From the NCBI GenBank assembly GCA_963931925.1, contig OZ007580.1:6282947-6346946 (forward strand): a stretch of DNA of 64,000 bases, given 5' to 3'. The DNA comes from Onchidella celtica. Its lineage: Eukaryota > Mollusca > Gastropoda > Systellommatophora > Onchidiidae. Shown in pieces: positions 22,229 to 64,000 of this stretch. The notes beneath the pieces are model-generated. The model made no database searches. It was not told where the DNA came from and saw nothing but the letters and a program-made list of their open reading frames with translations. The position numbers and the translations under genes are program-made. Each line of letters begins with the position of its first letter. The first letter of the stretch is position 1.

Positions 22229-22250
22229 TCATCCCCCACCCCAAAAAAAT
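22229..22250 (-). other. Polypurine tract, element A
   Basis: On the - strand, AATTTTTTTGGGGTGGGGGA followed by TGA abuts the 3' LTR. This is the expected plus-strand primer and matches that of element B. Confidence 0.7.
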
Positions 22251-26049: not shown

Positions 26050-27044
26050 TTCACAGATTTATGGTTATGGTATCTATTATGAGAATGACCAACCTGTCGG
26101 TATGATCACTAACGACACGACCAGAGACCTGAGATCACACCAGATATAACAACACCCAATTGTCTCAAATACAATTCAGAAATTTACCTACTGAACATTT
26201 TATAACCTACTTCCTAACTAATTCTATATTCATTAAATGTACAGCACTATTAATAATAAAAGAGAATAGAAACGACAAGAATGAAGAAATTCAGAAGAAG
26301 GACCACAAGGACATCGAGGAACAACGAACCAGACTAGGACAAAGACCTAAAAAAGAAAATATAATGGAAAAAAAAATGCAACCTAACTACGCCGATTACA
26401 CTACAAGGTACGAACAAGAACAGAGTCTGAAAAAAAAGAACGTATCTACAGATAGGTAAGAGAGGGACAAGAGAAACGTCTTCCTAAAACAACGAGGAAG
26501 ATGGAACGGCACAATCTAAACAAAAATACAGGTCCCTACAGAACTGTTCACTGTGATGAACGCGGTTCCAAGTTTAGCCCACCTCCCGAAGAGGATAAAC
26601 TACGCTCACCACAGCAAACCCGCGCCACCGCCCGTACAATCAATTACAACGAAAACAGCAAAAACAGAGAAAAAGACAGATTAAAGGAACAGCCCCCAAT
26701 CCAGGGTACAAAATTTCAGTTTCACTTAACTTTCTACTAGACTTAAGTTCCTCCCCTTTCTCGGAGCTCTGGCTGCTTGACCTCTACAGGCTGGCACACA
26801 CACTCTGCAGAAATTTAAGTACACATTAATACATATTCATCAAAATACATGCATCAATACATATTCATAAATATACATAAATTATACCATCATGAAATTT
26901 CCATTCATCCCACGAACAAAGACAGCACAAATTCCTACCACAAGATAAGTATTACGTGGACAAAAACTAAAGTAACAATTGCCCACTGAAAAATACCTAC
27001 TAACTAACTACAACTATATATTACGAGAATGGACGAGTCACAAC
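26050..27044 (-). other. 5' leader of element A
   Basis: About 1 kb untranslated leader between the primer-binding site and the gag ATG, related to the leader of element B. No frame of note. Confidence 0.7.
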
Positions 27045-27057
27045 GGACGAGCCCCCA
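27045..27057 (-). other. Primer-binding site, element A (tRNA-Pro type)
   Basis: TGGGGGCTCGTCC on the - strand, one base after the 5' LTR. It is the 13-nt start of the tRNA-Pro-complementary site known from murine leukaemia virus-type elements. Confidence 0.75.
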
Positions 27058-27058
27058 G

Positions 27059-28018
27059 TGTCACAAATCCCAGACTGGGAGATGTAATAAGTTATGACAG
27101 GACAACAATCACGAACGAACAAGTTTAACACTTAACAGAACAACCCATCAGACTCACACATTTATTAAACATAATTATACAGATAATAGCGCAATTACAT
27201 ACATTATATTATTGAATTTAACTGCCGTACAACGGCCTTATTCCCACATGCACTCTTCCTCGGATCCACAACCCGGTAGTTACTTCCTAAAGACACTTCG
27301 GCCTCAGCCTCTCCCCTCAGGGTCTTAATAGCACATTAATAATTCACTGGCACCGCAGTCTCTCAATATCACCTTCCTATTGCCATAACACCTTAGCATT
27401 CCACTAGCACCTCAGCAGGGCAATAGCACATTATCATTTCAATAGCCCATCAACATGGCAATAGCACATTATCATTTCAATAGCCCATCAACATGGCACT
27501 AGTACATTATCATTTCAATAGCCCATCAACGTGGCAATAGTACATTATCATTTCAATAGCCCATCAACATGGCAATAGTACATTATCATTTCAATTAGCA
27601 CATTCACGCTCATATCTACGTCCCTGTCCGTGACCAGACTGCCACGACTTTATGTGCCTCTACTGTCCTGCACCGACAGCCTCACTCTTGGCCTATGTGT
27701 GGCCTCCGGCCCTATGCTGGCCTATCCCCTGTGCTCACCGAGGTGGCTCTTTGGCCCGTCCCCGACACCAGTCATCACTGGAAAAAACTCTCTCACTAGT
27801 CTTCCGACTGCTCCCCTTATGTTCGCCCACCGGGCTTTCTCTTGCGTCCGCTCTTTAGGACGTTCTAACTTGCAGTGATAGTAATACAGCGCTCTCGCCT
27901 CATTCAGACCCCCACCACTCATAACATGCACGCTTTCCCTTACTTGTCTACGTGCGTTAATTTTACTCTCCTCCTTTCCCCCCGTAATTATTAACTATCG
28001 CTCACTCCACTCGTGACA
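27059..28018 (-). repeat. 5' LTR of element A (960 bp)
   Basis: Same sequence as 21307-22228 apart from scattered substitutions and one extra 38-bp tandem unit within 27420-27600. It begins TGTCACGAG next to GCCCA. Confidence 0.92.
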
Positions 28019-28161: not shown

Positions 28162-29479
28162 AGCACTTAATCACAATAGAAATAAGAAAATAACATACAG
28201 TAGGGCTTTCCACCTACTGCAGCGATCACCGCTGACACTGGATAGAGTGTAAGCAGATTATGTGTCTTCACTGACATTCAGCGTAACTGACACTGTTAGT
28301 AATAGAGCAGTGTGTACAAAGACTAAGGGATAATAAATTATTGTGTATTTTTGTGTTCGCGGAAGTTTCATCGGGTGAAAGTGGGTCAACCACTAGCTTG
28401 TTGGGGGTGGTGAGCTGTGGTAGATTACACGTTACAGAGAATGCACAGAAAACATTAAATTGTGGCAAAATTAGAGCGGAAATGTCGTGTGTTGCAAAAC
28501 CTTGCGGCAAAGCTAGAGACAACCAATAAAGAAACGTTACAATTCATGGCAAAAGAATTAAAACTGAAAAGGAATAAAAACACAAGCTATACTATTGATC
28601 GAAGTGTATGGCATGCTTACGATAGCACAAGGAATAAAAATCCGAACTGGGTTTTTATTTCTTACGGTAAAAATTCTTCTTTACATGGAAGATTTTTTTT
28701 TTGTTTGTTTGCTAGATTTCATCCAAACTTGTCAAAGCCCAGAAGAAAAAAAATGACAAAATTAAAACGTTCGGCAACAATTTCCTAACACGTTACTATG
28801 TATACATAAATTATACACATATGTATATAATGTATATATGCATAAAAGACAAACTCACTTCACCTCTGCCCTTTTAACAGGCAGCTCTTGACAAAAGTGA
28901 AGACAAAAGTTGTTTTTTGCAGCCTCAGTGAGTAGCTTAATTGTTGTGCAGGACAAGAAATTTCCTTGATGCACCCGGTTTATGAAGGACCGCTCACTCT
29001 TTCGCACGAACACTTGAGAAAAAGTATCGGATTTAATCTGCTGTGACCTCATAAAATCACCTATCCACTCACGTTAATCAATTCGAACAAAATACAGGTA
29101 TTTGATTGATTGTGATTATATCCTGGGACTCAACGAAAGAGACCACCTCCTCACTCAGAAATCACTAAAGCATGGGATGCCAACTGACGGGAAAATATCA
29201 ATATTTAAGAAATGATGAGAACGAAAGAGTCAGTATCACTGATTGTAAGGCTTTAATACATAATCATTTCAAAAATGAAAGGAATCCTTTTTTCCCCCAA
29301 ATTTCTCCGTAACCCGTCAACATATAGCAACTTTTTTCTTTAATATGAGTTATGGACACATTTTTTTTCCTCTATTTCATTTCAGATTCAAAGCTAGAAG
29401 ACTCTAGTCTAGATGCATGGCCACCCATTCTGTCCTTTTTGTGAGAGATACTTGACAATAATTTAAATATTTTAATTAA
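28162..29479. other. Spacer upstream of FMO pseudogene
   Basis: AT-rich spacer. Open frames at 28462-28788 (+) and 28855-29052 (-) have no recognisable domains. There is an AT-alternating stretch near 28795-28850. No gene is supported. Confidence 0.55.
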
Positions 29480-29737
29480 TTTTGCCCGGGCAGTGGCCTG
29501 TTCGGCCTGCTCTTCTCAATTTCCAACTGCCAAGGTATCTTAAACGTGCACACAGGCCCTGCGAGTTTTCATCCTTATCCAAGAGCACTCGATGTTCGAT
29601 CATACCTATCATAGGATCAGGGACAGGGGAAAATATGAGAAAATCCCAAAATTTCTACATGCCTGCACCGACCAGGATTCGAACTCAGTATCTCCCGCAT
29701 GAGAAGCAAACATCTTGCCTCTAGACCACCGTCAGTG
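29480..29737 (-). mobile_element. tRNA-Glu-derived SINE
   Basis: Read on the - strand the head (29666-29737) folds as a tRNA relic. The acceptor halves CACTGAC and GTCGGTG pair, the A box is GGTGGTCTAGAGG, the anticodon loop TTCTCAT carries CTC (Glu), and the B box is GAGTTCGAATCC. The A-box region resembles tRNA-Glu. A non-tRNA body of about 180 bp follows. The right border and any target duplication are not clear. Mismatches in the T stem speak against a functional tRNA. Confidence 0.6.
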
Positions 29738-35500: not shown

Positions 35501-38500
35501 ATCCGTCCATCCATCAATCTGTCTATCTGTCTGCCTGCCTGCCTGCCTGCCTGTCTATCTCATCTCATTTATCAATCTATTTATCTGCTTGCCTCTATGT
35601 TTATCTGCATGTAGTCATCTATGCCTCTGTGTTTGTGCTAATCTGTCCGACTGGCATTAATTTTATTTCTTGATATGACAAAGACAACATGGCTTAAGCA
35701 TGGCAACAGCTATTATCTCTTGGAGAAAAAGAAAACACATGTAATATCTTCCTCCTTCAGTCCCATTCCCCATAAAAGACACCAACTTTCTTCCAGTAAG
35801 ATTTGATTTTCCATGTTCATTTCCAAAACTTACCAACTCTTTTGACATATCAGCTTCCATCTCCATTTTGGATGGTAGCTTGAGTTTGCCTTTACAAAGT
35901 TCTGAAAACCATCGGGCTTGCATCTCGGACATAACCAGGATACCACCTGAAGCAGGTTGGACGAAACCAATAAACGCTAGACTGGAGCCAATCTCTGGAG
36001 CAAAGACATTCTTGTACAACTGTTGTATTGCAGAGAGAAGGGGGGAGCATCAGGGATGTACTGCTATAATGACCACAGAACTTAAAAACACACTGCATAC
36101 TACTGTCTCTTGGAGATTGAGAAAACATGTTACTATATAGCTATTTGACAGCATTATAGTACCCATGTAGATAATTTTCTATGCATCTGCTTATCCTCAA
36201 TTGTTAAGATGTCCATCCCTTTTCACCACATCCCCTACCCCCAACTCCTTCTATCCATCTCATTTATGTACCTGTCACTTTGCCTGATTTTGCATCCCCT
36301 CTTGTCCAACAAATAAACCGAATGAATACATGTATATATATGAAACTGCAACAATTTGACCCCTGAGTATTCAGAATCCACCTCAACAAAAGGAAGTAAT
36401 TCTTTTTGCACCCATGACAAACTTTGACCTTAAGGCTAAAAACTGGAAGTAGACATAAATATGCACACACTAATCTTTAGGTACTTGAAAGCTCCATCAG
36501 CTTATGGAAAGAAATACTCACCTTTATTTGGTTTGAGCCTTCATCAATCACCTGCTTTTGTATGGAATCTGGTAAATATGGAAGGTCAATTTTGTAACCT
36601 GTACAATAGACGATTTTGTCAAACTCTGCACTTGAACCATTGACAAAGTGTACAGTGCTCCCTTCGATCCTCTGAAAATGTGACAAATTCAAAAACAATA
36701 ATGTCAGTAAAATGATGACACCGTTAATGATGCAATAATAAAAGCAGTGATAATTTGGGGCGATACTGATGAAAACAGTAAATGATGAGACTAAAAAAGG
36801 ATGGCAGTGACAACAAACTCAAGTCAAAGACAGCGAAATTAACCAAAGCTTGCGGTCACGAGGTGGGTGGCATGTTTGTACAATGACCATTAATAAATCT
36901 GCTTTATACGATACTAATTCAGCAGCAGACCTACAAACTCACATGTCCCAATGACTGAAGTCAAAGCCTCACACATGAAATAATACAGAAACAAAAATGC
37001 AGAGAAAAAGGGAAGACAAATCGAGCTTAGTTACATTAACCTTCTTCAAAAAAACAACAAAAAAAATGTAATAGGATGGAAAATTGAACCAATAAAAAAA
37101 CTGAACAAATAAAAAAATTGCAGAATGTAGAACCAATACGAGTACTTAGCTGCTGGTCCAGACTTGAATTTTCTGAGCACAACACGTCGCTTTTCCTTTT
37201 GCCATATTTTGTCTTTGCTCCAAGCCTTGTTGTGACCCGACACATTTTCGGTGATTTTTATGATATTTCGTGAAGTCCCAGTGACTGAATATTACCGGTG
37301 TAGCAGGCCAGATTATACCCCCGCCAGACTATACCCGGGGTTAAACTGGCCTAGCCCAGAATATCCCCCGGGGTATGGGGTATATTCTGGGCTGGCCAGT
37401 TTGTAACAGGCCAAAATATACCCCCGGCCCAGAATATACCCGGGGTTAAACTGGCCTAGCCCAGAATATCCCCCGGGGTATATTCTGGGCTAGGCCAGTT
37501 TATACCCCGGGGTTACTTTGGGCTAGGCCAGAATATACCCCCCCAGTCCAGATTATACCCCCTGCTTTTTCTTTAAAAACAAGTCAAGACCACAGTTTAT
37601 TTCAGCCTGTTCTTCATCACTGTCATCAGATATCATATTAAGACATACATGAACACATTCTTCACACCAACAAGTCATAATGCAATTTAGAGAAAATAAT
37701 AATAACAGTTTATTTCAGCCTTAGTTTACTTTGGTGTACATACATAGGCCTACATTCTCGACTCCTGTAAATCATGATACATTTTAGAAGGAACAAACAT
37801 GCCTTAAAATGCATTGATATACAAAAGAGTTGGGTATCCATTCAAACTGACATGATTAGACTTCAGCATTAATTTCACTCGTGAGTGTTGATGATATTAT
37901 TATTATTATTATTATTTTGATAGTTAGTTGGCCATGAGTAAAACATGCATTGTATTTTTTGTTATAATGATGTAGAGAGAAAAGGCCAGAAAAGAACACA
38001 CAGAAAAAAATAACAATGATAATCCAACTGACAGATAGTGCAATTCCATCATCCAGCAGATATAAAACTAAATAGGCACTTAATGTTTGCGACCTGTCCA
38101 GATCCACTTGAAACGTTACAGAATGCTATCCAGTAATAATGATAACAATAAGAACACGAAATCATGTTATTTACTCTTGAAAATATAGAGAAATATCAAT
38201 ATCAGAATCATCATCATCATCTTGGAAATTGCAAAGATATGAGAGGTAGTGTAAAAATGGCAGCGTATGCTTACAAATCATTCTAGAATTTATAAGCAGC
38301 AATGTATGTGTATCAACTATATATAAAAAACGTGTTAAACCTTTTCAAATATTCAAGTAAAACTGGACAGAAAGCTTTAGTGAAATAGCCTTGACAGTTG
38401 TGTAGGCCGACAGAGTAAGTCCACTGAGACAAAAGTAGTGCATTATAAAAGGTAATAAGATCTATAGCATGTTGAGGCAAAATTCAATGGATCATGTTAC

Positions 38501-41500
38501 ATTAACAGTATTTCTTGTTAGTGAGTATCATTCTTTGATAGGTTATTTGTAGAAAGATATACATTTCATGTACATTACGGTTTAAGACATTGGATTAGTT
38601 TGCAAGGTATTTGAAAGATTGAACTTATATGTTATAACTTATAGTGAGTAAGGGAATGTCACTCGCGAGTGAAATGAAATAAAAATAAAAAAAGAAAAGA
38701 CCTTGTCCGTCTTTACCTACCTAAGCTTAACACGTCCCTTGCCAAGGGATTTAACAACTGTGTATTTGTACACAAAAAAATATTTAAAATGACTTCATTT
38801 TTATGAGTCCGTTAATTATTTCATCCATTGGGACTAAGTGTATGTCAGTGCCAAACAAACAGTACCGTGCAAATTTTACTCAATGGCAATCAACTACAAA
38901 AACAACTACAACATGCCAACGAACGTGAGTGAAACTAATCCAGTGCCTTAAACCATGAGCTACATAAAATGTATACATTTCTACAAATACGCTATCAAAG
39001 AATTTACTAACAAGACATGTTCATGCAACATGATCCATCGAATTTTTGCCATAACATACTATAATTACTTTCTGCAAAGCACTGTTGTCTCAGTGGATTT
39101 AATCTGTCATTTTACATGACTATCAAAGCTACTTCGCTAAAGCTTTCAGTCCAGTTCCACTTGAATAGTTGAAAAGATTTAACACATTATTTTTTACATG
39201 TACTTGGTACATATACACATATATTATTGCTGCTTATAGATTCTAGAATGATGTGTAGGTCATTTTTATATTCCCTCTTATCTTTGTATTATTCCAAGAT
39301 GATGGTGATTCTGATATTGATTATATTCTCTTTATTTTCAAGAGTAAATAAGATGATTTGGTTTTCTTATTGTTATTATTGTATATTACTGGTTAGCTTT
39401 CTGTAACGTTTCAAGTGGATCTGGACAGGTTAAATTCATTATGTGAAACAATTTTAGTATGTATTTAGTTTTGTGTGAAGTATTTAATGTCTGCTGGATG
39501 ATGGAATTGCACCATCTGCCAGTCCAGTTGTTAAAATGTTGTTGTTGTTTTTTTCTCTATGTATTCTTTTCTGGCCTTTCTCTCTGCATCAGTGTAACTT
39601 TATATATAGATCTAGTTGTTCCGACATATCAAGCACATTTCTGATTTTCAAAAATTATAATAAGATTCAGATAACTTTACACTTATGAGTCTTATAATTA
39701 GTTCATACCTTGCCACTAAGTATATGTTAGTGGTGCCAAACAAAAAAATTACAATACATGTTTAACACATGGACAACTAATTATAAAAAAACCAAAACAA
39801 TAATAATACCAACGGACACAAGTAAAATTAGTGTTAAAGTTTAATCATATCAGTTTCAATTGATTTTCAATCCTTTTGTATATTAATGCTTTTTAAGCAT
39901 GTTTATGTCCTTTTAAATGTATCATAATTTACAAGAGTCAAAAATGTATGCTTCAATATGATATCTGATGACAGTGATAATGAACAATTCAAACTAAAGT
40001 TGAAATAAACTACGGTCTTGACTTGTTTTTTAAAAAAAGTAGGGGGTATAATCTGGACTGGGGGGGTATAGTCTGGCCTAGCCCAAAGTAAACCCCGGGG
40101 TATAAACTGGCCTAGCCCAGAATATACCCCGGGGGATATTCTGGGCTAGGCCAGTTTAACCCCGGGTATAGTCTGGCGGGGGTATAATCTGGCCTGCTAC
40201 ACCGGTATAAGTCGGCAGAGCTGATTTTGAGAAAAACGGCTTTGAAGTGAAAATATGGGTCCAACACAAACCTCCAACTTGGCTGTTGTTTAGGGGACCG
40301 TGGCATGTTACAGGGTAAACTGTAGACGAGCAGTGAACACTACTCACTATGATCTCTATAATGGCTTTGTAATTAGACTACGGTCTCCTAACAAGATCAA
40401 AAAACTTCCGACTTGGTTGTTGTTTAGGGGACCGTGGCATGTTACAGGCAGGGGCGAAGCGTGGCCGTCTGCAGAGGGTAATCAGAATTTAAGCTAGTAA
40501 GATCCTCATAATAGGACGAATCGCTACATCATAAATTATGTACATAATTATAAATGCAGCGACTAAAACAATGAAACGGTTGCTAGGCACTGCAAAAATC
40601 TGAAGAGCGGACTATTCTTGTCAACAGGACAGGAATGCAGCAATTTACAAGCCAAACTAATCTGAAAAACTATTCATTCATACTAACAGACTTATAAACG
40701 CATATTTTTCACCCATTTTTTAAAATATAATTTGAACAGTACGTTTTCACTGTCATATTCATAGCCAGAGATTTTGTTATTCTACCATCTCATAAAGTTT
40801 CTCGGAAAGGACCCATTAACATTAAATGGTAGAAAGTGCTTAAATGGCATCTTTGTGACACAACAATGTGTAGCGATTGCGGAGAAGTGGCTATCTACCG
40901 TTGTGGTTTAGGTTCGTGTAACATATCAAGTGAATTGATGTTCTTATTAATCTTAATGCGTTCGACTGATTTTGATCACAGTTATATCTAGATCTAGACT
41001 ATAATAATTATTATTCTTTGATAGCTCTTGCTGTGCGTAGAGTAAATTATTCTTAGATTACCTCAAACAAAAAACAAAAAAATCCACACAAACTCTTTCA
41101 CTCGACTCTTTACCTTTCGAGTGGGATGAAAACGACCCAATAGTGAAAAACCTGCATAAGTACGTAAAAACGGGTCAAACTTTGATTATAAACCTATTTT
41201 TTTCCCCCACTATTTTGCTGTCTGCGGCGCCGCTTTGAAGAAAACAGGCTATGCTCAAGCTCGCTTCTAGGTGTAGTCAAGTCTTCTTCGTCTTTGTTAA
41301 TCACTGATTTTGGACCAGTGCATATGGTGTAAGTCCCTACAAAGATGCTTTTCGGTGAGGGGTGTTAGACTATAACAACAAACCCAAAATAGCAACGTAG
41401 AATAGAATGCTGAACTGACTAAATGGACTTGGAGTTGGGCTCGATCTGAAAAGCGTAGTAATTCTAGAATTAATATTCAAAGGGTAATCACTGATTCTTT

Positions 41501-44500
41501 GATTATGAAGAAGCCTCGCCCCTGGTTACAGGGTAAACTGTAGATGAGCAGTGAAAACTACTCACTATGATCTCTATAACTGCTTAGTTATTAGACTACG
41601 GTCTCCTAACAGCAATCACTCCAATATTTCTTGGTCGATTAGCTATTGCCACTTATAGGATTAAATGCCATTTTCTCAAAATCTTGTTTTAGGGGGGTCA
41701 TTGTCTTCAATTTATCAGAAATGTCTTGTCCTTTATTATATGTACAGAACTCAAAATGTCATGTTGCCGACTTATGCCGGGTTTTCTCATGCACACTCAC
41801 ATATTGAAGCATACATTTTTGACTCTTGTAAATTATGATACATTTAAAAGGAAATAAACATGCTTAAAAAGCATTAATATACAAAAGGATTGAAAATCCA
41901 TTGAAACTGATATGATTAAACTTTAACACTAATTTTACTTGTGTCCGTTGGTATTATTATTGTTTTGGTTTTTTTATGATTAGATCTAGTTGTCCATGTG
42001 TTAAACATGTATTGTAATTTTTTTTGTTTGGCACCACTAACATTATACTTAGTGGCAAGGTATGAACTAATTATAAGACTCATAAGTGTAAAGTTATCTG
42101 AATCTTATTTTAATTTTTGAAAATCAGAAATGTGCTTGATATGTCGGAACAATTAGATCTACATACAAAGTTACACTGATGCAGAGAGAAAGGCCAGGAA
42201 AGAATACATAGAGAAAAAAACAACGACAGCATTTTAACAACTGAACTGGCAGATGGTGCAATTCCATCATCCAGCAGACATTAAATACTTCACACAAAAC
42301 TAAATACATACTAAAATTGTTTCACATAATGAATTTAACCTGTCCAGATCCACTTGAAACATTACAGAAAGCTAACCAGTAATATATAATAATAACAATA
42401 AGAAAACCAAATCATCTTATTTACTCTTGAAAATAAAAAGAATATAATCAATATTAGAATCACCATCATCTTGGAATAATACAAAGATAAGAGGGAATAT
42501 AAAAATGACCTACACATCATTCTAGAATCTATAAGCAGCAATAATATATGTCTGTACCAAGTACATGTAAAAAAAAATGTGTTAAATCTTCAACTATGCA
42601 AGTAGAACTGGACTGAAAGCTTTAGCGAAGTAGCTTTGATAGTCATGTAAAATGACAGATTAAATCCACTGAGACAACAGTGCATTGCAGAAAGTAATTA
42701 CAGTATGTTATGGCAAAATTTCGATGGATCATGTTGCATGAACATGTCTTGTTAGTAAATTCTTTGATAGCGTATTTGTAGAAATGTATACATTTTATGT
42801 AGCTCATGGTTTAAGGCACTGGATTAGTTTCACTCACGTTCGTTGGCATGTTGTAGTTGTTTTTGTAGTTGGTTGCCATTGAGTAAAATTGGCACGGTAC
42901 TGTTTGTTTGGCACTGACATACACTTAGTCCCAATGGATGAAATAATTAACGGACTCATAAAAATGAAGTCATTTTAAATATTTTTTTTTTTGTACAAAT
43001 ACACAGTTGTTAAATCCCTTGGCAAGGGACGTGTTAAGCTTAGGAAGGTAAAGACGGACAAGGTCTTTTTTTTATATTATTATTATTTCACTCGCGAGTG
43101 ACATACCCTTATTCACTATAATACATAGGTTCAATCTTTCAAAAGCCTTGCAAACTAATCCAGTGTCTTAAATCGTAATGTCCATGAAATGTATATCTTT
43201 CTACAAATAACCTATCAAAGAATGATACTCACTGACAAGAAATACTGTTAATGTAACATGATCCATTGAATTTTGCCTCAACATGCTATAGATCTAATTA
43301 CCTTTTACAATGCACTACTTTTGTCTCAGTGGACTTACTCTGTCGGCCTACACAACTGTCAAGGCTATTTCACTAAAGCTTTCTGTCCAGTTTTACTTGA
43401 ATATTTGAAAAGATTTAACACGTTTTTTATATATATAGTTGATACACATACATTGCTGCTTATAAATTCTAGAATGATTTGTGGGCATACGCTGCCATTT
43501 TTACACTCCCTCTCATATCTTTGCAATTTCCAAGATGATGATGATGATTCTGATGTTGATATTTCTCTATATTTTCAAGAGTAAATAACATGATTTCGTG
43601 TTCTTATTGTTATCATTATTACTGGTTAGCATTGTGTAATGTTTCAAGTGGATCTGGACAGGTGGAGTTCATCAGTAGCAAACATTTAGTGCCTATTTAG
43701 TTTTATGTCTGCTGGATGATGGAATTGCACAATCTGCCAGTTTCATTATCATTATGTTTTTTTTTTTTTTTTCTGTGTGTTCTTTTCTGGTCTTTTCTCT
43801 CTACATCATTGTAACAAAAAATACAATGCATGCTTTACTCATGGCCAACCAACTATCAAAATAATAATAATAATAATAATAATATCATCAACACACACGA
43901 GTGAAATTAATGTTGAAGTCTAATCATGTCAGTTTGAATGGATACTCAACTCTTTTGTATATCAATGCATTTTAATGCATGTTTGTTCCTTCTAAAATGT
44001 ATCATGATTTACAGGAATCGAGAATGTATGTATGTACACCAAAGTAAACCAAGGCTGAAATAAACTGTTATTATTATTTTCTCTAAATTGCATTATGACT
44101 TGTTAGTGTCAAGAATGTGTTCATGTTTGTATTAATATGATACCCGATGACAGTGATGAAGAACAGGCTGAAATAAACTGTGGTCTTGACTTGTTTTTTT
44201 TAAAAAAGTAGGGGGTATAATCTGGACTGGGGGGGTATAGTCTGGCCTAGCCCAAAGTAACCCCGGGGTATAAACTGGCCTAGCCCAGAATATACCCCGG
44301 GGTATATTCTGGGCTAGGCCAGTTTAACCCCGGGTATATTCTGGGCGGGGGGTATATTTTGGCCTGTTACACCGGTAAAGAGTTCTATTCAGCTACACAA
44401 CACTGAAGCTACTATATATGACAACCGGCTCAAACATACAACAGTTCTTCTTCAAATTAAAAAAAACTTCACATCAGCATTTGGTAACTCAATTATATGT

Positions 44501-53858: not shown

Positions 53859-54315
53859 CCGGTGTAACAGGCCAAAATATACCCCCCGCCCAGAATATAC
53901 CCGGGGTTAAACTGGTTAAACCGGGGTTAAACCCCGGGGTATATTCTGGGCTAGGCCAGTTTATACCCCGGGGTTACTTTGGGCTAGGCCAGACTATAAC
54001 CCCTCAGTCCAGATTATACCCCCTACTTTTTTTTAAAAACAAGTCAAGACCACAGTTTATTTCAGCCTGTTCTCTATCACTGTCATCAGAAATCATATCA
54101 ATTCATACTTGAACACACTCTTGACACCCATAAATCATAGTACAATTTAGAGGAAATAATAATAACAGTTTATTTCAGCCTTAGTTTAAATTGGTGTACA
54201 TACATACATTCTTGACTCCTGTTAATTATGATGCATTTTAGAGGAAACAATTATGCATTAAAATTCATTGATATACAAAAGGGTTGAGTATCCATTCAAA
54301 CTGATATGATTAGAC

Positions 54316-55553
54316 TGTCACGAGTGGAGTGAGTGCAATTAAGGGGATTGCTACAGAGCGGGTGTAGAATAAGAAGAGCTCACGACAGACGGATAGGAAA
54401 AGACGTGAAAGGGGAAGAGTAAAAATAACTCATGCAGACAAGTGGGAAAAGCGTGCGTGTATGAGTGGTGTGGAAGTCTGAATGAGGCGAAAGCGCTGGA
54501 TTACTATCACTGCAAGTTAGAAGGTCCTACGGATCGGACCTGTGAATAGGAGCCCATCGGGCGGACATAAAGGGAAGCAGTCGAGAAGACTAGTGAGAGT
54601 CTTTCCAGTTACGACTGGTATGTAGAACGTTGATTGATTATTATGATTGATGTATTATATTATATTCGTCTATTACCATGATGTGAATAAGTATATGTGA
54701 GGAATGTGGAAGTCCTTGATATTGGATATAGCAATGTGCGCCACGAGCGATAGATGAAAGTGAGTTCATGGATTTGTAGCGCGAGTGAGTAGTGTGTACT
54801 CCGATGGAGGTGTGTTACCGTAAGATGTGTGGTGAGTGAAAGGTGAACTAGTGTGTGTACGCTTCATGGATTGTAAGGAGAGGTGGAGTGAATAGAAATG
54901 GTAGGATATTATACCAATGTAATGTTATTCTTGTAGGTGTCGGGGACGGGCCGCAGAGCCACCTCGATGAGCACAGGGGATAGGCCAGCATAGGGCCGGA
55001 GGCCACACATAGGCCAGAAGTGAGGCTGTCAGTGCAGGACAGTAGAGGCACATAAAGTCGTGGCAGTCAGGCCACGGACAGGGACGTAGATATGAGAGTG
55101 AATGAGATACTATATTGTTGCCATGTTGATAGGCTAGTGAACTGATACTATGTTGTTGCCATGTTGATGGCTATGGAAATAATAATGTGTTATTGCCCTG
55201 CTGAGGTGCGAGGGGAATGCTAAGGTGTATGACAATAGGAAGGTGATATTGAGAGACTGCGGTGCCAGTAAATTATTAATGGGCTATTAAGACCCTGAGG
55301 GGAGAGGCTGAGGCCGAAGTGCCTTTAGGAGTAACTACCGGATTGTGGATCCGAGGGAGAGTGTGTGTGAGAATAAGGCCGTTGTACGGCAGTCATTTCA
55401 ATAATATAATGTATGTAATTGCGCTATTATATGTATAATTATGTTTAATAAATGTGTGAGTCTGATGGGCTGTTTTGTTAAGTGTTAAACTTGTTTGTTC
55501 GTGATTGTCGTCCTGTCATAACTATTACATCTCCCAGTCTGGGATTTGTGACA
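54316..55553 (+). repeat. 5' LTR of element B (1238 bp)
   Basis: TGTCACGAG...TTTGTGACA. Relative to the LTR of element A it carries an extra segment of about 310 bp (about 54622-54935) between the CCAGTTACGACTGGT motif and GTGTCGGGGACGGGCC. Confidence 0.93.
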
Positions 55554-55590
55554 CTGGGGGCTCGTCCGTTGTGACACTGGGGGCTCGTCC
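55554..55590 (+). other. Duplicated primer-binding site, element B
   Basis: TGGGGGCTCGTCC (tRNA-Pro type) at 55555-55567, again at 55578-55590. The repeated unit TTGTGACACTGGGGGCTCGTCC-like (22 bp, period 23) includes the last bases of the LTR. Confidence 0.8.
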
Positions 55591-56520
55591 TGTTTACCTG
55601 TGGTCATTTTGACATTGTGTAGTCGTTATATCTAGTTGTTTTTCTGTTGTGCTAGGAATTCGTGCTGTTGTCCTTGTTCGTGGGATGAATGGAAATTTCA
55701 CGATGATATGATTTATGTATGTTTATGAATTATAATATGTATTGATGCATGTATTTTGATGAATATATATTAATGTGTACTTAAATTTCTGCAGAGTGTG
55801 CGTGCAGCCTGGGGAGACAAGCAGCCAGAGTTCCGAGACAAGGGGAGAGGTTATAGTCAGAAAAGTTAAGTGAAAATTTTGTACCCTGGATTGGGGGCTG
55901 TTCCTTTAATCTGTCTTTTTCTCTGTTTTTGCTGTTTTTGTTGTCGTTATAGGTTATACGGGCGGTGGCGCGGGTTTGCTGTGGTGAGCGTAGTTTGTCC
56001 TCTTCGGGAGGTGGGCTAAATTTGGAACTTCGTTCATCACAGCGAACAGTTCTATAGGGACCTGTATTTTTGTTTAGATTGTAGCGTTCTATCTTCCTCG
56101 TTGTTTTAGGAAGACGTTTCTCTTGTCCTTCTCCTCCCTATCTGTAGATACGTTCTTTTTTTTCAGACTCTGTTCTTGTTTGTACTGTGTTGTGTAATCG
56201 GCGTAGTTAGGTTGCATTCTTTTTTCCATTATATTTTCTTTTTTAGGTCTTTGTCCTAGTCGGGTTCGTTGTCCTTGACGTACTTGTGGTCCTTCTACTA
56301 TATTTCTTCATTCTTGTCGTTTCTATTTTCTTTTATAACTAATAGTGCATACATTTTGTAGATATAGAATTAGTTGTGCTGTAAAGGTAAATTTCTGAAT
56401 TGTATTCTGAACTGGGTATTGTTATATCTGGTGTGATCTCAGGTCTCTGGTCGTATCGTTAGTGATCATACCGACAGGTTGGTCGTCTTATAATAGATAC
56501 CATAACCATAAATCTGTGAA
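55591..56520 (+). other. 5' leader of element B
   Basis: About 930-bp leader up to the gag ATG, related to that of element A. No coding signal. Confidence 0.7.
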
Positions 56521-59157
56521 ATGGCGGAACTCCAACAACTAATGAAGTTGGGTAAGGAACTTGGCCTGGAGGGAGAAGAGCTACGCGGCTGGATTAAAGA
56601 ACAGCAGGCGGATTTGCGCGATGAGCGTGCTAAGGATAGAGAGCGGCAGACAGAAAAAGAGGCTCAAGAGCGACAGAGAGAAGAGGAAAGGGAGTTTAGG
56701 CAACAGGAAAGAGAGGTTAAGGAAAGGGAGCAGGAAAGGGAGATAAAGTTAAAGGAGATAGAAGCTCAAGAGCGGGAGACAGACGCGCGAGTAAGAATCG
56801 CGGAATTAGAATTCAAAAAGAATGCGCCAACGGAAACGGTTGAGCGGCAGGTACACAATAAAGGTGGCGTTAGGATTAAGCTCCCTACGTTCGACGACCG
56901 GAAGGACGACATAGACGCCTTCCTTTACAGGTTCGAACTGAACGCACAATTGCAATGGGGGGAAAATAAGGAATTATGGGCCACGTACCTGGCGTCGCTA
57001 TTGCAGGGGCGAGCGTTAACATACTTTAAAGAGCTACAGCGCGAAGACGTGCAAGATTACGATAAGCTGAAGGCTTTGCTGCTTCGCCGATTTGCGCGTA
57101 CCGAGGAATATTTCCGGGAGCAGTTTAGGCGAGCACGTGCAGACACCAGGGAGGACTTTGCTGCCTTCGTCGCGAGACTAACGGAGTATTTCGCGAACTG
57201 GGTAGACTTGGCGCATGTGGGCGCGGATTTTGCTAAACTGAAAGACTTAATGATCCGTGACCAGCTGTACGCGTCGTGCCACAAAGATCTGGTGGCTTTC
57301 CTGAAAGAGAACGAACCCGCGACGGTGCAGGAGGCGTCTAAGTTGGCGGAGGCATACCGTACGGCGCATCCGTCCAAACCGGTCGCCAGGGCGTACGTCC
57401 AAGATGCTGGGTACGTCGCCGTTGTCGAGGGGTCGCCGGCAGGACTTAAGGACAGGTCGCGTCAGCGTGGTGCCTATAGCGGGCAAGCCCAGGGGCAGCG
57501 TAGGGGCTATCACCAATCACCGGCATATGGATCCGGTAAGTTTGACCGAGCAGGAGGGCTAGGTCGCGGTAATGGCCGGGGGCGATTTGTGACCTTTGCC
57601 GATGACCGACGGCATAGGGACTCTAGTTCCGGTCGCGATGGGTCACGGGGACCCAGGCCTAGTGCAGCACAGGGAGCGGAGTGCTGGACTTGCGGACGCG
57701 TGGGTCATTTTTCGCGCGAGTGTAGGGCCGCGAAGTGTTGGAACTGCGGAAGAGCAGATCACATCAGCGTGAACTGCCCTGCAGGTAGGATAGCGGCGAA
57801 CGTGGACAGTAGCTCCAGTCCATGTTCCCCAAATAAATTTCATCATGCGGCTGCGTGTGTTACATCGGACAACGGAGGCGGACAGTATTCTAAGTGTCCC
57901 AGTTGTGAGAAGTTATTATCTTCCGGTGTTTTACCTTGTGGGAGAAAGATCCCCGTTATAAATTCATGTCATACAGGAGGTGGTCTTAGGGTTTATCCGG
58001 GGTTTGTTGGGGACGAACCGGTCTCGGTTTTACGAGATACAGGATCTACCGTTGTGGGAGTGCATAGAGACTGCATTCGGGATTCACAGCTTACAGGTGA
58101 GACTGTCCCATGCATCCAATTTTCGGGGGCCATTGAGAAATTACCCATGGCAAAAATAATGATAGATACACCTTTCCTTAGCGGGGAAGTCGAAGCAGTC
58201 GTTGGTTGTTTTCCAGGCGCCCAGCTCATCATTGGGAATGTATCACGGGTAGTTTCCCCTTCCGATGAGAACGTGCAAGCATGGTCGCAATCAAAAGGTA
58301 TTGACTTTTGCGCCGCGGTCGAAACACGCCGACGGGTAGCTGATAAAGATAAGATTAGACCTTTGGCTACGCCAGCGGTCAACCTAGATATCACGCCAGA
58401 GCGCTTGGCGAGATTACAAAGGGAGGACCCATCATTAAACCCATGTTTTGGGGAAGCGCGAACCGAGAAAACGAGGAAATATAAAAACGGGTCATCTTCT
58501 TTTTTTGTCCAGGGGGGCATTCTGTTCCGTATGTACGTCGCGGTGGCGTCCGTTCAAAAGCAGGTCGTCGTGCCACGGTCGTTGATTGCTACGGTATTGC
58601 GTCTGGCCCATGATGTTCCATTAGCGGGTCATATGGGAAGTGCTAGAACCAAGCAGAGAATTCTGAAAGATTTTTATTGGCCATCGATACATAGAGATGT
58701 ACGGCTGTATTGTAAGACGTGCAGTGCGTGCCAAAAGACGACACATAAGGGTCGTACACCCCAGGCTCCTCTTCAAAAGATCCCCACGGTTTCGGAACCG
58801 TTTAAAAAGGTTTCGATAGACCTTGTTGATTTAAGAGAAAGATTATCTTCAGCGCGCACTATAGCAGAAGAAGCTTCTAGTATCGCTTCGAAAAGAGCAA
58901 AAGACTATAAAGATAGAGGTTCCAAATTGAGAATTTTTAAGCCAGGAGACAAGGTCCTATTGTTGTTACCTACGGACCGTAATAAGTTATTGATGACATG
59001 GAAAGGTCCTTATGTTATTGAGCGAGTTGTTTCAAAGGTAGATTACGCTATCCACATTGATGGAACGAGTAAGGTTTTCCACGTTGATATGCTGCAGTGG
59101 TTTCATGAGAGACCAGACTATCTGTATTCTCATACTAGTGTTGAAGGACATACCTAA
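56521..59157 (+). CDS. Gag-protease-partial integrase polyprotein, element B
   Basis: 878 residues. Coiled coil rich in Glu/Arg/Gln (about 25-100) and a capsid domain (about 110-290; TYLASLLQGRALTYFKELQR, REDFAAFVARLTEYFANWVD). CCHC knuckles CWTCGRVGHFSREC and CWNCGRADHISVNC lie at about 388-420, and protease RDTGSTVV near 506. The integrase His2-Cys2 domain is at about 694-750 (HDVPLAGHMG, CKTCSACQKT). VSIDLV (about 767) joins straight to DLRERLSSARTIAEEASS and the integrase C-terminal domain (KPGDKVLLLLPTD, WKGPYVIERVV). The catalytic core is absent, as in element A. Gmr1-like capsids are known relatives of the vertebrate SCAN domain; the fit here is inferred from the helical pattern. Confidence 0.92.
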   Translation: MAELQQLMKLGKELGLEGEELRGWIKEQQADLRDERAKDRERQTEKEAQERQREEEREFRQQEREVKEREQEREIKLKEIEAQERETDARVRIAELEFKKNAPTETVERQVHNKGGVRIKLPTFDDRKDDIDAFLYRFELNAQLQWGENKELWATYLASLLQGRALTYFKELQREDVQDYDKLKALLLRRFARTEEYFREQFRRARADTREDFAAFVARLTEYFANWVDLAHVGADFAKLKDLMIRDQLYASCHKDLVAFLKENEPATVQEASKLAEAYRTAHPSKPVARAYVQDAGYVAVVEGSPAGLKDRSRQRGAYSGQAQGQRRGYHQSPAYGSGKFDRAGGLGRGNGRGRFVTFADDRRHRDSSSGRDGSRGPRPSAAQGAECWTCGRVGHFSRECRAAKCWNCGRADHISVNCPAGRIAANVDSSSSPCSPNKFHHAAACVTSDNGGGQYSKCPSCEKLLSSGVLPCGRKIPVINSCHTGGGLRVYPGFVGDEPVSVLRDTGSTVVGVHRDCIRDSQLTGETVPCIQFSGAIEKLPMAKIMIDTPFLSGEVEAVVGCFPGAQLIIGNVSRVVSPSDENVQAWSQSKGIDFCAAVETRRRVADKDKIRPLATPAVNLDITPERLARLQREDPSLNPCFGEARTEKTRKYKNGSSSFFVQGGILFRMYVAVASVQKQVVVPRSLIATVLRLAHDVPLAGHMGSARTKQRILKDFYWPSIHRDVRLYCKTCSACQKTTHKGRTPQAPLQKIPTVSEPFKKVSIDLVDLRERLSSARTIAEEASSIASKRAKDYKDRGSKLRIFKPGDKVLLLLPTDRNKLLMTWKGPYVIERVVSKVDYAIHIDGTSKVFHVDMLQWFHERPDYLYSHTSVEGHT

Positions 59158-59968
59158 TGTCGTGTCATTCTTTGACGATATAGCATGCCATACGTCGACA
59201 TGGTCTGATCATATTCAGACACTAACAGTAATTTTTCAACGATTACGTCATTTTGGGTTAACTGCTAAACCCGCAAAGATGGATTTGGCATGTCCAGAGA
59301 TAATATTCTTAGGACATATTGTGGGTAGAGGTGTTCAGAGACCTGAAGAAACAAAAATTGACAAGTTAGTAGGGTTGCAAATCCCTAAAACAAAGAAACA
59401 AGTCAGAAGCTTAGTGGGAATTTTAAATTATTACAGAAAGTTCATTCCAAATTTTTCCTCCTTGTCATCTTCTCTTACTGACCTTACTAAGAAGGGACAA
59501 CCCGATAAGGTCCAGTGGACATCTGAATGTCAGACATCATTTGATAATTTGGTGACAGCATTATCATCGTCACCCATTTTGATATTACCCGATTTTCGAT
59601 CTAATTTTATCCTCAGAACGGATGCGTCGGACTCTGGTGTCGGCGCTTGTCTTCTACAGGAGAAGAACGAATGTCTCCATCCTGTATGTTATGTCAGTAG
59701 GAAGTTATTGCAGAGAGAAAGAAAGTATTCTGTGATAGAGCGTGAGTGTCTTGCCATTGTCTGGTCAGTCCAGAAACTAGGACGTTATCTCATGGGACGA
59801 GAATTTTGTATCCAGACAGACCACAAGCCACTGACATTTTTGTCGAAGAATCTTTCGTCCAGCCCACGCTTGTCTAGATGGGCATTGGCTTTGCAGCCGT
59901 ATACCTTCGTTATTCAACCAATCCCAGGAACCAGCAATCATATCGCCGACTACCTTAGTCGAGCCTAG
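59057..59968 (+). CDS. Partial reverse transcriptase-RNase H, element B
   Basis: 303-residue frame overlapping the previous one by about 100 bp in another phase. RT similarity starts at LVLKDIPNVVSFFDDIACHT (about 59138), then RT thumb (FLGHIVGRGVQRPE, LVGILNYYRKFIPNFSSLSS) and RNase H (ILRTDASDSGVGACLLQE, VIERECLAIVWSVQKLGRYL, QTDHKPLTFLSKN), to the stop at 59966-59968. RT motifs before the Asp-Asp box are missing. How this frame would be expressed (frameshift or none) is unclear. Confidence 0.87.
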   Translation: MMERVRFSTLICCSGFMRDQTICILILVLKDIPNVVSFFDDIACHTSTWSDHIQTLTVIFQRLRHFGLTAKPAKMDLACPEIIFLGHIVGRGVQRPEETKIDKLVGLQIPKTKKQVRSLVGILNYYRKFIPNFSSLSSSLTDLTKKGQPDKVQWTSECQTSFDNLVTALSSSPILILPDFRSNFILRTDASDSGVGACLLQEKNECLHPVCYVSRKLLQRERKYSVIERECLAIVWSVQKLGRYLMGREFCIQTDHKPLTFLSKNLSSSPRLSRWALALQPYTFVIQPIPGTSNHIADYLSRA

Positions 59969-60323
59969 GGGAAGATTTCAGGAGCTTATACATCAGAGGA
60001 CAGGAACATTGACAGGATCTGTGTGAATAAGTCGACTTTAAAATATTGACATTATAAATATGATATGAAGAATGGTTGATAGGTTGAGTGGTTTTTGATT
60101 CTGTATTAGATATTGTGTTTAGTTAGCTATTCATGATGTGACACATATATGCATATTGCAGGCCATATTGATCCCCATATTTTCCCCTGATTTCGGTATT
60201 CTATATACTAGGGGAACTGCTAGGTCATTTTTCTAGTGTAGGTATTGCTCACGCTCACTCGTTGACAGTCATCTTGATGCGATTTGAAATTAATTGCATT
60301 AATTTTTTTGGGGTGGGGGATGA
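59969..60323 (+). other. 3' untranslated region and polypurine tract, element B
   Basis: About 350 bp ending in TTTTTTTGGGGTGGGGGATGA directly before the 3' LTR; the purine run is the probable plus-strand primer. Confidence 0.7.
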
Positions 60324-61561
60324 TGTCACGAGTGGAGTGAGTGCAATTAAGGGGATTGCTACAGAGCGGGTGTAGAATAAGAAGAGCTCACGACAGACGG
60401 ATAGGAAAAGACGTGAAAGGGGAAGAGTAAAAATAACTCATGCAGACAAGTGGGAAAAGCGTGCGTGTATGAGTGGTGTGGAAGTCTGAATGAGGCGAAA
60501 GCGCTGGATTACTATCACTGCAAGTTAGAAGGTCCTACGGATCGGACCTGTGAATAGGAGCCCATCGGGCGGACATAAAGGGAAGCAGTCGAGAAGACTA
60601 GTGAGAGTCTTTCCAGTTACGACTGGTATGTAGAACGTTGATTGATTATTATGATTGATGTATTATATTATATTCGTCTATTACCATGATGTGAATAAGT
60701 ATATGTGAGGAATGTGGAAGTCCTTGATATTGGATATAGCAATGTGCGCCACGAGCGATAGATGAAAGTGAGTTCATGGATTTGTAGCGCGAGTGAGTAG
60801 TGTGTACTCCGATGGAGGTGTGTTACCGTAAGATGTGTGGTGAGTGAAAGGTGAACTAGTGTGTGTACGCTTCATGGATTGTAAGGAGAGGTGGAGTGAA
60901 TAGAAATGGTAGGATATTATACCAATGTAATGTTATTCTTGTAGGTGTCGGGGACGGGCCGCAGAGCCACCTCGATGAGCACAGGGGATAGGCCAGCATA
61001 GGGCCGGAGGCCACACATAGGCCAGAAGTGAGGCTGTCAGTGCAGGACAGTAGAGGCACATAAAGTCGTGGCAGTCAGGCCACGGACAGGGACGTAGATA
61101 TGAGAGTGAATGAGATACTATATTGTTGCCATGTTGATAGGCTAGTGAACTGATACTATGTTGTTGCCATGTTGATGGCTATGGAAATAATAATGTGTTA
61201 TTGCCCTGCTGAGGTGCGAGGGGAATGCTAAGGTGTATGACAATAGGAAGGTGATATTGAGAGACTGCGGTGCCAGTAAATTATTAATGGGCTATTAAGA
61301 CCCTGAGGGGAGAGGCTGAGGCCGAAGTGCCTTTAGGAGTAACTACCGGATTGTGGATCCGAGGGAGAGTGTATGTGAGAATAAGGCCGTTGTACGGCAG
61401 TCATTTCAATAATATAATGTATGTAATTGCGCTATTATATGTATAATTATGTTTAATAAATGTGTGAGTCTGATGGGCTGTTTTGTTAAGTGTTAAACTT
61501 GTTTGTTCGTGATTGTCGTCCTGTCATAACTATTACATCTCCCAGTCTGGGATTTGTGACA
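60324..61561 (+). repeat. 3' LTR of element B (1238 bp)
   Basis: Same length as the 5' LTR and nearly identical. Ends GTGACA at 61561 next to TAGAC. Confidence 0.93.
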
Positions 61562-62889
61562 TAGACTTCCGCAGTAATTTCACTCGTGTTTGTTATTATT
61601 ATTATTATAATATTTTGATAATTGGTTGGCCATGGGTAAATCATGCACTGTATTTTTTGTTACAATGATGCAGAGAGAAAAGGCCGGAATACAACACACA
61701 TAGAAAAAAATAATAAAAACAATAACCCAACTGACAGATGGTGCAATTCCATCATCCACTTCAAATAAAACTAAATAGGCACTAAATTTTTTTCGCCTGG
61801 TGAACTCCACCTGTCCAGATCCACTTGAAACTTTACAGAATGCTAGCCAGTAATATACAATAATAACAATAAGAACACGAACTCAACTTATTTACTCTTG
61901 AAAATAAAGAGAAATATCAATATCAGAATCATCATCACCATCTTGGAATAATGTAAAGATATAAGAGGGAGTGTAAAAACGGCAGTGTAGGCCTACAAAT
62001 CATTCTAGAATCTATAAGCAGCAATATGTGTGTATCAACTACTTATATAAAATGTGTTAAATCTTTTCAACTATTCAAGTAGAACTGGACAGAAAGGTTT
62101 AGTGAAATAGCCTTGACAGTTGTGTAGACCGACAGAGTAAGTCCACTGAGACAAAAGTAGTGTATTGGAAAAAGTAATTAGGTCGATGGATCATGTTGCA
62201 TTAACAGTATTTCTTGTTAGTAAATATTCTTTGATAGCTTATTTGTAGAAAAATATACATTTCATGTACCTTATGGTTTAAGACACTGGATTAGTTTGCA
62301 AGGCATTGGAAAGATTGAACTTACTCATTATAGTGAATAAAGGTTTGTCACTCGCAAGTGAAGTAAAATTTAAAAAAAAAAAGACCTTGTCCGTCTTTAC
62401 CTTCCTAAGCTTGACACGTCCCTTGCCAGAGGATTTAACAACTGTGTATTCGCACACAAAAATACTCTAAAATAACTTCATTTTTATGAGTGTGTTAATT
62501 ATTTCATCCATTGCGACTAAGTGTAAGTCAGTGCCAAACAAACAATACTGTGCAAATTTTACTCATGGGCAACCAACTGCAAAAACAATCACAACATGAC
62601 AACGAACTGAGTGAAATGAGGGTTAAAGTTGAATCATATCAGTTTGAATGGATATTCACCCCATAACATATCAATACATAATAATGTATGTTTTTTCCTC
62701 TGAATTGTATTATGATATACGGAAGTCAAGACTGTAGGTATGTATTACTATGGTGCCCGTTGACAGTGATAAAAAAATGAATTAAACTATGATTGAAATA
62801 AACTGTGGTGTTTAGGCTAAACTATATTCCACCAGTCCAGATTATACTCCTATATTCAGGCAAAATATTCAAGGATACAACATTAAGTT

Positions 62890-64000
62890 TTTAAAATTTT
62901 ATTTCACCCGCAAGTGACATGCCTTTATTCACATGCATTAATAATAATACATAACTGCAATCCTTCAAAGGCCCTGCAAACTAATCCAGTGCCTTAAACC
63001 ATGAGCTACATGAAATGTATACCTTTCTACAAATAAGCTGTCAAAGAATTTACTAACAAGAAATATTAACGCAACATGATCCATCGATTTTTTTGCCGAA
63101 ACATACTGTAATTACTTTCTACAGTGCACTGTTGTCTCAGTGGATTTAATCTGTCAGTTTTCACGACTATCAAAGCTACTTTACTAAATAAACTTTCTGT
63201 CCAGTTCTACTTGAATAGTTGAAAAGATTTAACACATTTTTTACATATAATACATGTAGTTGGTACACACACTTTGCTGCTTATAGATTCTAGAATGATG
63301 TGCAGGTCATTTTCACATTCCCTCTTATCTTTATAATATTCCAAGATGATGATGATGATGATTCTGATATTGATTATATTCTCTTTATTTTCAAGAGTAA
63401 ATAAGATGATTTCGTGTTCTTATTTCTATTACTGTATATTACTGGTTAGCATTCCGTAACGTCTCAAGTGGAGCAGGACAGGATAAGTTCATGATGTGAA
63501 ACAATTTTAGTACGTATTTAGTTTCATGTGAAGTATTTAATGTCTGCTGGATGGTGGAATTGCACCATCTGTCAGTTGGGTTATTTTTAAAATGTTGTTG
63601 TTGTTGTTTTCTCTGTGTGTTCTTTCCCGACCTTTTCTCTCTGCATTATTGTACCTTTATATGTAGATCTAATTGTTCTGACATATCAAGCAAATTTCTG
63701 ATTTTCAAAAATTAATATAAAATTCAGATGACTTTACACTTATGGGTCTTAGGATTATTTCATACCTTGCCACTAAGTATATGTTATTGGTGCCAAAGAA
63801 AAAAAAAATACAATATACGTTTAACTCATGGACAACTAATTATAAAAAAAAAACAATAATAATACCAACGGACACAAGTAAAATTAGTGTTAAAGTCTAA
63901 TCATATCAATTTGAATGGATTTTCAAACCTTTTGTATGTATATCAATGCTTTTTACTGCATGTTTATTTTCACTTAAATGTATCATAATTTACAAGAGTC
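62890..64000. mobile_element. Foldback element 4, partial, continues past window
   Basis: Starts inside the family's centre (TTTCACCCGCAAGTGACATG) and proceeds along an arm that matches 38930-39960 of foldback 1 (AACTAATCCAGTGCCTTAAA, GTCTCAGTGGATTTAATCTG, ATTCTAGAATGATGTG). The outer end is not reached. Confidence 0.75.

What the first reader, a model, noticed from the sequence alone, without database searches (positions are those of the whole stretch)
37295..44375. Family of long non-coding foldback elements with palindromic terminal arrays
Elements 1 and 2 share long inverted arms, an asymmetric centre of about 320 bp and CCGGTGTA ends. Their outermost 160-270 bp are made of short modules that are each other's complements (TATACCCC, CCCAGAATAT, GGCCTAG). 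I cannot match this end sequence to a named superfamily. No protein is encoded, so the mobilising enzyme is unknown. The inverted arms suggest a foldback-type DNA transposon; the modular palindromic ends could serve as clustered protein-binding sites.
Basis: partly seen in the sequence, partly recalled or inferred. Interest (0 to 1): 0.82.

Follow-up and report, generated by a model that had tools for sequence, protein, structure and literature searches.

The report
Jumping DNA that targets own ends
These non-coding repeats in an animal genome are cut-down copies of a known kind of cut-and-paste jumping gene (Ginger1) whose protein-coding relative sits elsewhere in the same genome, and their unusual patterned ends carry the very landing site that the element uses.

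Summary
E1 (37295-40205), E2 (44375 down to about 41800) and a third copy, E3 (53859 to beyond 64000, split by an LTR element), are non-autonomous Ginger1 DNA transposons. CCGG is not the element's end but its 4-bp target duplication; the element is TGTAR...YTACA. CCGGTGTARCAGGCC occurs 2577 times genome-wide, its reversed control once; the ACGG version 21 times. The flanks of nested copy L036, joined with one CCGG, restore an uninterrupted target, itself another copy's end. The genome holds an 8694-bp element with the same two ends, encoding a 650-aa Gypsy-integrase-like protein with an OTU domain, the Ginger1 signature. All three window copies carry a 22-28-codon relic of that gene in their centre, as do 27 of 29 fetched loci. 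Unusual are the foldback form, the copy number, and end arrays holding the CCGG sites of E1. Copies do insert into such arrays (L036; 38 of 2577 ends have an array-type TAACC flank), which explains double ends such as E1's left one. What the arrays do in transposition is inferred.

The parts
37295..40205 (+). E1, non-autonomous Ginger1 copy with both ends, bounded by CCGG (37295-37298 and 40202-40205)
   Evidence: ends match the autonomous element
37299..37398 (+). Extra outer TGTAG-type end (about 100 bp) outside E1's TGTAA-type end, read as a remnant of one copy inserted into another's end array
   Evidence: direct repeat of E1 positions 5-111 and 108-210; locus L004 has the same order with an intact CCGG between the two ends
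37402..37412 (+). Terminus TGTAACAGGCC inside E1, preceded by AGTT instead of CCGG
37299..37570 (+). Left end array: modules like CCAGAATATACCCC in both orientations around CCCCGGGG
   Evidence: 6 CCGG against a shuffle mean of 2.03, maximum 5
40041..40201 (-). Right end array of E1 (TGTAG-type end)
   Evidence: 3 CCGG against a shuffle mean of 1.21, maximum 4
38602..38931 (+). Asymmetric centre of E1
   Evidence: matches coding and upstream parts of the autonomous element
38699..38764 (-). Relic of the transposase gene, GPY/F region (residues 405-426 of the 650-aa protein)
   Evidence: 67 bp at 83.6% DNA identity and 22 aa at 81.8% with one stop
41800..44375 (-). E2, copy in opposite orientation; outer TGTAA-type end intact (CCGG 44372-44375), inner end lacks about 250 bp
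43000..43083 (+). Transposase-gene relic in E2 (28 aa at 67.9%)
44209..44371 (-). End array of E2 with a perfect 56-bp palindrome
53859..64000 (+). E3, third copy, interrupted at 54316-61561 by an LTR retroelement; right end about 270 bp beyond the window (in L052), where CCGG is altered
62380..62448 (-). Transposase-gene relic in E3 (23 aa at 73.9%)
62470..62850 (+). Extra inner copy of an element end region with a degenerate piece of end array in E3's centre
   Evidence: alignment scores 268 (highest of 200 shuffles 62) and 48 (highest 32)

Best explanation
E1, E2 and E3 are non-autonomous Ginger1 DNA transposons, deleted and rearranged relatives of an 8.7-kb transposase-bearing Ginger1 element in the same genome. 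A Gypsy-integrase-like transposase made by intact autonomous copies recognises the ends, joins TGTA...TACA to a CCGG site with a 4-base stagger, and so leaves CCGG on both sides. The end arrays, parts of the foldback arms and the relic of residues 405-432 in the centre are shared with the autonomous element. Because the arrays contain CCGG, copies also insert into one another's ends, which gives double ends and composites and perhaps tandem end arrays. Shown: shared ends, one CCGG in the empty site and two in the filled one, shared inner blocks, gene relic, transposase domains, one self-insertion resolved to the base (L036). Inferred: binding of the arrays by the transposase, mobilisation in trans, and that self-insertion built the composites.
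For: CCGGTGTARCAGGCC: 1273 forward + 1304 reverse, reversed control 1 + 0; ACGG version 14 + 7, control 0 + 1. Empty site: L036's flanks joined with one CCGG align with E1's right-end array over 106 columns with one gap (score 205; with two CCGG 194, with none 186); L030's target against an uninterrupted repeat copy in L051 also fits one best (193, 182, 179). Transposase-bearing element G000:C3:49972358-49981051, 8694 bp, bounded by CCGG, one TGTAG and one TGTAA end, 1056 bp at 82% and further blocks shared with E1. Its 650-aa frame has Integrase_H2C2, rve and OTU and lies inside the integrase+OTU clade (99/99). Relic of its gene in E1, E2 and E3 and in 27 of 29 fetched loci; 50 shuffled queries hit on average 0.08 of 36 pieces. 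Published Ginger1 features: TGTNR ends, duplications CCGG (75%) or CCGT/ACGG (24%), TIR about 40-270 bp, integrase-like transposase, OTU or Ulp1 at the C-terminus (PMC2836005, passages and section 5 seen).
Against: The one transposase-bearing copy read has Y where nine of nine aligned relatives have the first catalytic D, so this copy is probably inactive; further loci with a 650-aa frame were seen only in the OTU listing. Away from the ends the shared blocks are 68-82% identical, so this copy is not the immediate parent. Only 40 of 1514 first-look candidates were scored. A genome-wide count of flanks that does not require CCGG did not complete (tool busy). Among ends in loci fetched without asking for CCGG, plus the window, 10 of 15 are preceded by CCGG; the other five are E1's inner junction and four ends in the tandem array L006. 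The empty site in L051 reads CTGG, one mismatch, and the window repeat compared with L032 has no CCGG there. The ACGG share is far below the 24% (CCGT and ACGG together) reported for hydra.
Confidence: 0.95

Rival explanations
1. A foldback element of the Mutator type or of an unnamed superfamily, with TA or longer target duplications.
For: Long inverted arms and modular ends resemble foldback elements such as Tetris (passages of PMC4079207); E1 happens to have TA on both sides.
Against: 0 of 16 inspected pairs have TA on both sides; one CCGG in the empty site; the element with the same ends carries a Gypsy-type integrase.
Confidence: 0.02
2. The end arrays have no selected role: they are by-products of repeated self-insertion and slippage at CCGG, and the transposase needs only the outermost few tens of bases.
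For: Tandem end units of 40 and 94 bp occur; E1's left array contains a second end. In most arrays CCGG counts are above the shuffle mean but within its range.
Against: The transposase-bearing element has the same modules at both ends, and a 202-bp copy made of arrays alone is bounded by CCGG (L049), which fits the arrays being sufficient for movement.
Confidence: 0.4
3. E1 and E2 are one local inverted duplication, later split by a small inserted element, rather than two insertions.
For: E1 and E2 are 94.6% alike, while E3 is about 84-90% like them; E2's truncated inner end lies close to E1's end once the small element between them is discounted.
Against: The outer flanks are unrelated; several copies elsewhere match E1 at 94-98%, so 94.6% is not exceptional.
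Confidence: 0.3
4. Another integrase moves these copies, for example that of the second Ginger-like gene (L062, 920 aa) or of the Gypsy-type LTR elements.
For: L062 also has H2C2, rve and OTU; Gypsy LTR elements share the TGTNR end pattern (PMC2836005 passages).
Against: No CCGGTGTA end and no match to E1 longer than 27 bp in the 10.3 kb around L062; the relic matches the 650-aa protein.
Confidence: 0.05

Closest known systems
Ginger1 DNA transposons (PMC2836005; passages and section 5 seen)
   Same: TGTNR ends, 4-bp CCGG duplication, TIR length, 500-800 aa Gypsy-like transposase with OTU; non-autonomous copies sharing the ends of an autonomous one are reported there for lancelet.
   Different: Here 2577 exact ends (largest families in its Table 1: >100 copies), foldback form, modular end arrays with CCGG cores, few ACGG ends (21 against 2577), transposase-bearing element of 8.7 kb against about 2.6-7 kb.
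Foldback elements such as Tetris (PMC4079207; passages seen)
   Same: Non-coding, long inverted arms, tandem modules in the ends that also form tandem arrays elsewhere.
   Different: Tetris has 8-10 bp duplications, no known autonomous parent and a suggested Mutator affiliation; here CCGG and a Ginger1 relative with the same ends.
KolobokP (PMC9587614; passages seen)
   Same: Composite-like DNA transposons found in molluscs among other phyla.
   Different: A Kolobok lineage (TTAA) with long terminal direct, not inverted, repeats.
ISL2EU and other PHIS groups (PMC4482050; passages seen)
   Same: Considered while a 2-bp duplication seemed possible.
   Different: AT, TWA and other AT-rich or 3-bp duplications; not CCGG.

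Membership tests
Ginger1 | Ends TGTNR...YNACA | tested here: met
   TGTAR...YTACA at E1, E2 outer end, E3 left end and the transposase-bearing element; the 16 pairs also have it, but they were found with that pattern
Ginger1 | 4-bp target duplication CCGG (or CCGT/ACGG) | tested here: met
   flanks of L036 and L030 fit an empty site with one CCGG best; 2577 CCGG against 21 ACGG ends
Ginger1 | TIR of about 40-270 bp | tested here: met
   transposase-bearing element: 120 bp at 81% plus 122 bp at 77%; E1: 112 bp at 92% plus 261 bp at 88%, with further inverted arms inside
Ginger1 | Gypsy-like integrase: H2C2 finger, DDE core, GPY/F | tested here: met
   in the partner only: Pfam H2C2 and rve; GPY at 403-405, D222 and E258 conserved, but the first D is Y in this copy. 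E1-E3 hold only a relic
Ginger1 | YPYY motif before the zinc finger | tested here: inconclusive
   KYPxxIY is the majority there in the alignment; not compared with the published motif alignment
Ginger1 | C-terminal OTU or Ulp1 domain | tested here: met
   OTU at 526-615, 36.3 bits
Ginger1 | Transposase groups with named Ginger1 proteins | tested here: inconclusive
   groups with ten integrase+OTU proteins at 99/99; the 11 RT-bearing proteins form one side of a branch at 73/95 only. Named Ginger1 reference proteins were not on hand
Mutator-type foldback | 8-10 bp target duplications | tested here: not met
   one CCGG in the empty site, no longer repeat
Tc1/mariner or other TA-specific | TA target duplication | tested here: not met
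   0 of 16 pairs have TA on both sides

The most novel reading that the evidence does not exclude
The end arrays are at once transposase-binding clusters and preferred landing sites: the family homes to its own ends, and this self-targeting has built its double ends, its fused foldback units and its tandem, satellite-like end arrays.
Probability: 0.3. Interest if true: 0.7.

Novelty: new variant of a known kind. Interest (0 to 1): 0.45.

Why it matters
It gives an orphan foldback family a relative with an enzyme, and shows that foldback architecture can arise within Ginger1, a group whose transposase is close to Gypsy and retroviral integrases; most foldback elements have been placed in Mutator (PMC4079207, passage). 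If the self-targeting reading holds, it is a simple route from transposon ends to composite elements and satellite-like arrays. The gene relic in nearly every copy looked at makes the descent testable.

Tried and rejected
Collections without informative relatives: two patterns gave 0 hits in viral contigs, a 30-base pattern 0 in genome contigs; a 16-base pattern gave two viral contigs records (L001, L002), judged likely chance for so short a pattern and not studied. Rfam at gathering threshold: 0 matches; tRNA: 0.

Pairs of ends about 11.7 kb apart looked like autonomous elements. Three of four (B1, B3, B4) are foldback copies holding an insert bounded by 1.19-1.24-kb direct repeats of 99% identity, as in LTR elements; B2 holds two copies or pieces and about 6.4 kb that I did not identify. 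L039, L041, L042, L044, L047 and L040 carry reverse-transcriptase ORFs of other nested elements. L043 holds an element 89-91% like the window's LTR element.

Of 86 OTU matches, 8 were fetched and scanned: 2 have integrase domains (L058, L062), 3 have DDE_1, 1 has Tc5/CENP-B DNA-binding domains, 2 OTU alone.

Literature searches. For a Ginger1 foldback family the ones that bear are 40 (6 papers), 72 (3) and 73 (3); from listings and abstract starts, nothing beyond PMC2836005 looked relevant. That is not proof that nothing is in print. Seen of papers: PMC2836005, passages and section 5; PMC4482050, PMC9587614 and PMC4079207, passages only.

Full report
What is there. The window is animal DNA: it holds two Ty3/gypsy-type LTR elements, and the named relatives of one of them that carry a species name are molluscan (three of eight hits). 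It lies in a 1.14-Gb assembly of 43 contigs at C14:6282947-6346946. E1 runs from 37295 to 40205 with both ends. E2 is the same sequence on the other strand from 44375 down to about 41800, lacking about 250 bp at its inner end. A third copy, E3, starts at 53859, is split by an LTR element at 54316-61561 and runs past the window end. E1's arms match each other at 75-88%, while E1 and E2 match at 94.6%: the foldback form is older than the split of these copies, and the family spreads as a unit.

The ends. CCGGTGTARCAGGCC occurs 1273 + 1304 times in the genome, the reversed control once. In the listed places (the first part of contig C1) 29 inward-facing neighbour pairs lie under 15 kb apart; all 29 were fetched. 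By my reading of that listing 13 of 29 are 2.59-3.19 kb long and 27 of 29 pair a TGTAA end with a TGTAG end. In the 16 pairs inspected no TA stands on both sides; three of the 16 (L030, L032, L037) share one short target core. Copy L036 sits inside another copy's end array: its flanks joined with one CCGG align with E1's right-end array over 106 columns with one gap, better than with two or none (205, 194, 186). L030's target, compared with an uninterrupted repeat copy in L051, also fits one best (193, 182, 179), although that copy reads CTGG at the site. A third comparison, L032 with a diverged window repeat, adds little (91, 81, 84; no CCGG there). Hence CCGG is a 4-bp target duplication and the element begins with TGTAR. 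By sequence alone a cut inside CCGG without duplication would look the same; the staggered cut follows from what is published for Ginger1. E3's right end reads TACACCTGG, so its CCGG is altered.

The relative with a transposase. TGTNR ends with CCGG duplications are the published signature of Ginger1 (PMC2836005). A scan for the OTU domain gave 86 matches, 8 of which I fetched. One, on C3, is a 650-aa frame with Integrase_H2C2, rve and OTU. Its element spans C3:49972358-49981051, 8694 bp, is bounded by CCGG, has one TGTAG and one TGTAA end identical to those of E1 and E2 over at least the first 30 bases, and shares blocks with E1 on both sides of the gene. Its protein lies inside a clade of integrase+OTU proteins (99/99); named close relatives come from Nucella lapillus and Oopsacas minuta.

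The relic. The centres of E1, E2 and E3 hold 67 bp of that gene at 82-85% identity, reading YTVVKSLGKGRVKLR.VKTDKV or close to it, the GPY/F region. A tblastn with that stretch finds it in 27 of 29 fetched loci, the misses being L049, a 202-bp copy made of arrays alone, and L051; L050 is weak (E 0.002). Shuffled queries hit 0.08 of 36 pieces on average. Beside it lies sequence matching a stretch upstream of the gene's start. So the centre looks like the scar of an internal deletion of the transposase gene. This is the strongest evidence that the family descends from such an element rather than merely sharing its ends.

Limits. The transposase-bearing copy read has Y at the first catalytic position, where nine of nine aligned relatives have D, so it may be dead; other loci with a 650-aa frame appear in the listing but were not read. 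Its blocks shared with E1 are 68-82% identical, so it is a cousin of the parent. The second Ginger-like gene, L062, does not show these ends. A count of ends that does not require CCGG did not complete; in held loci fetched without that requirement, plus the window, 10 of 15 ends are preceded by CCGG, four of the rest lying in the tandem array L006 and one being E1's inner junction; in the loci fetched with it, 71 of 73 are, two reading CAGG.

Self-insertion and arrays. CCGG occurs 6 and 3 times in E1's left and right arrays and not once in the 2450 bp between them. Against dinucleotide shuffles the left count is clearly high (mean 2.03, maximum 5); the other arrays are above the mean but within the range. 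Of 2577 ends, 56 have WWACC before CCGG: 38 TAACC, 9 ATACC, 5 TTACC, 4 AAACC. TAACC and ATACC are the flanks of CCGG sites in the arrays; TTACC and AAACC serve as a rough background. The 38 divide 19 and 19 between TGTAA and TGTAG ends, so they are not one amplified event, but how many are independent was not tested, nor was the number of array CCGGs at risk counted. E1's left end has an extra 100-bp TGTAG end outside its TGTAA end; L004 shows the same order with CCGG intact between them. Tandem end units of 40 bp (L051) and 94 bp (L006) occur. E3's centre contains a further relic of an end with array modules, which suggests that the foldback is itself a fusion of related units. That history is inference.

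Function. Binding of the modules by the transposase, movement in trans and preference for own ends are shown by nothing here. I hold the Ginger1 assignment at 0.95 and the self-targeting reading at about 0.3.

Noticed in passing
54316-61561: Ty3/gypsy-type LTR element inside E3: LTRs of 1238 bp, 99.9% identical, TAGAC repeated at both flanks; ORFs with SCAN-like gag, zinc knuckle, integrase zinc finger and RT/RNaseH.
   Followed up: partly
21305-28018: Second copy of a related LTR element on the minus strand (end repeats 95.6% alike).
   Followed up: no
40449-41524: hAT-like element (by ends CAGGGGCG...CGCCCCTG and the 8-bp repeat GTTACAGG at both flanks, read; the name is recalled) without a long ORF.
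   Followed up: no
40206-41782: Small element between E1 and E2 with inverted ends TATAAGTCGGCA/TGCCGACTTATG, holding the hAT-like element; it too abuts CCGG on both sides.
   Followed up: no
29460-29730: Copy of a dispersed repeat with a tRNA-like GTTCGAATCC stretch; L030, L032 and L037 (three of 16 inspected pairs) sit at the same short target core, and L030 and L032 match this copy.
   Followed up: partly
L056 559-3057, L057 392-2458, L061 355-2466: OTU domains also fused to DDE_1 transposases in this genome.
   Followed up: no
B1, B3, B4 (L019-L020, L023-L026), L043 and E3: LTR-type elements sit inside foldback copies at five loci seen; L043 and E3 hold the same family (89-91%), the others were not typed; a preference was not tested.
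   Followed up: no
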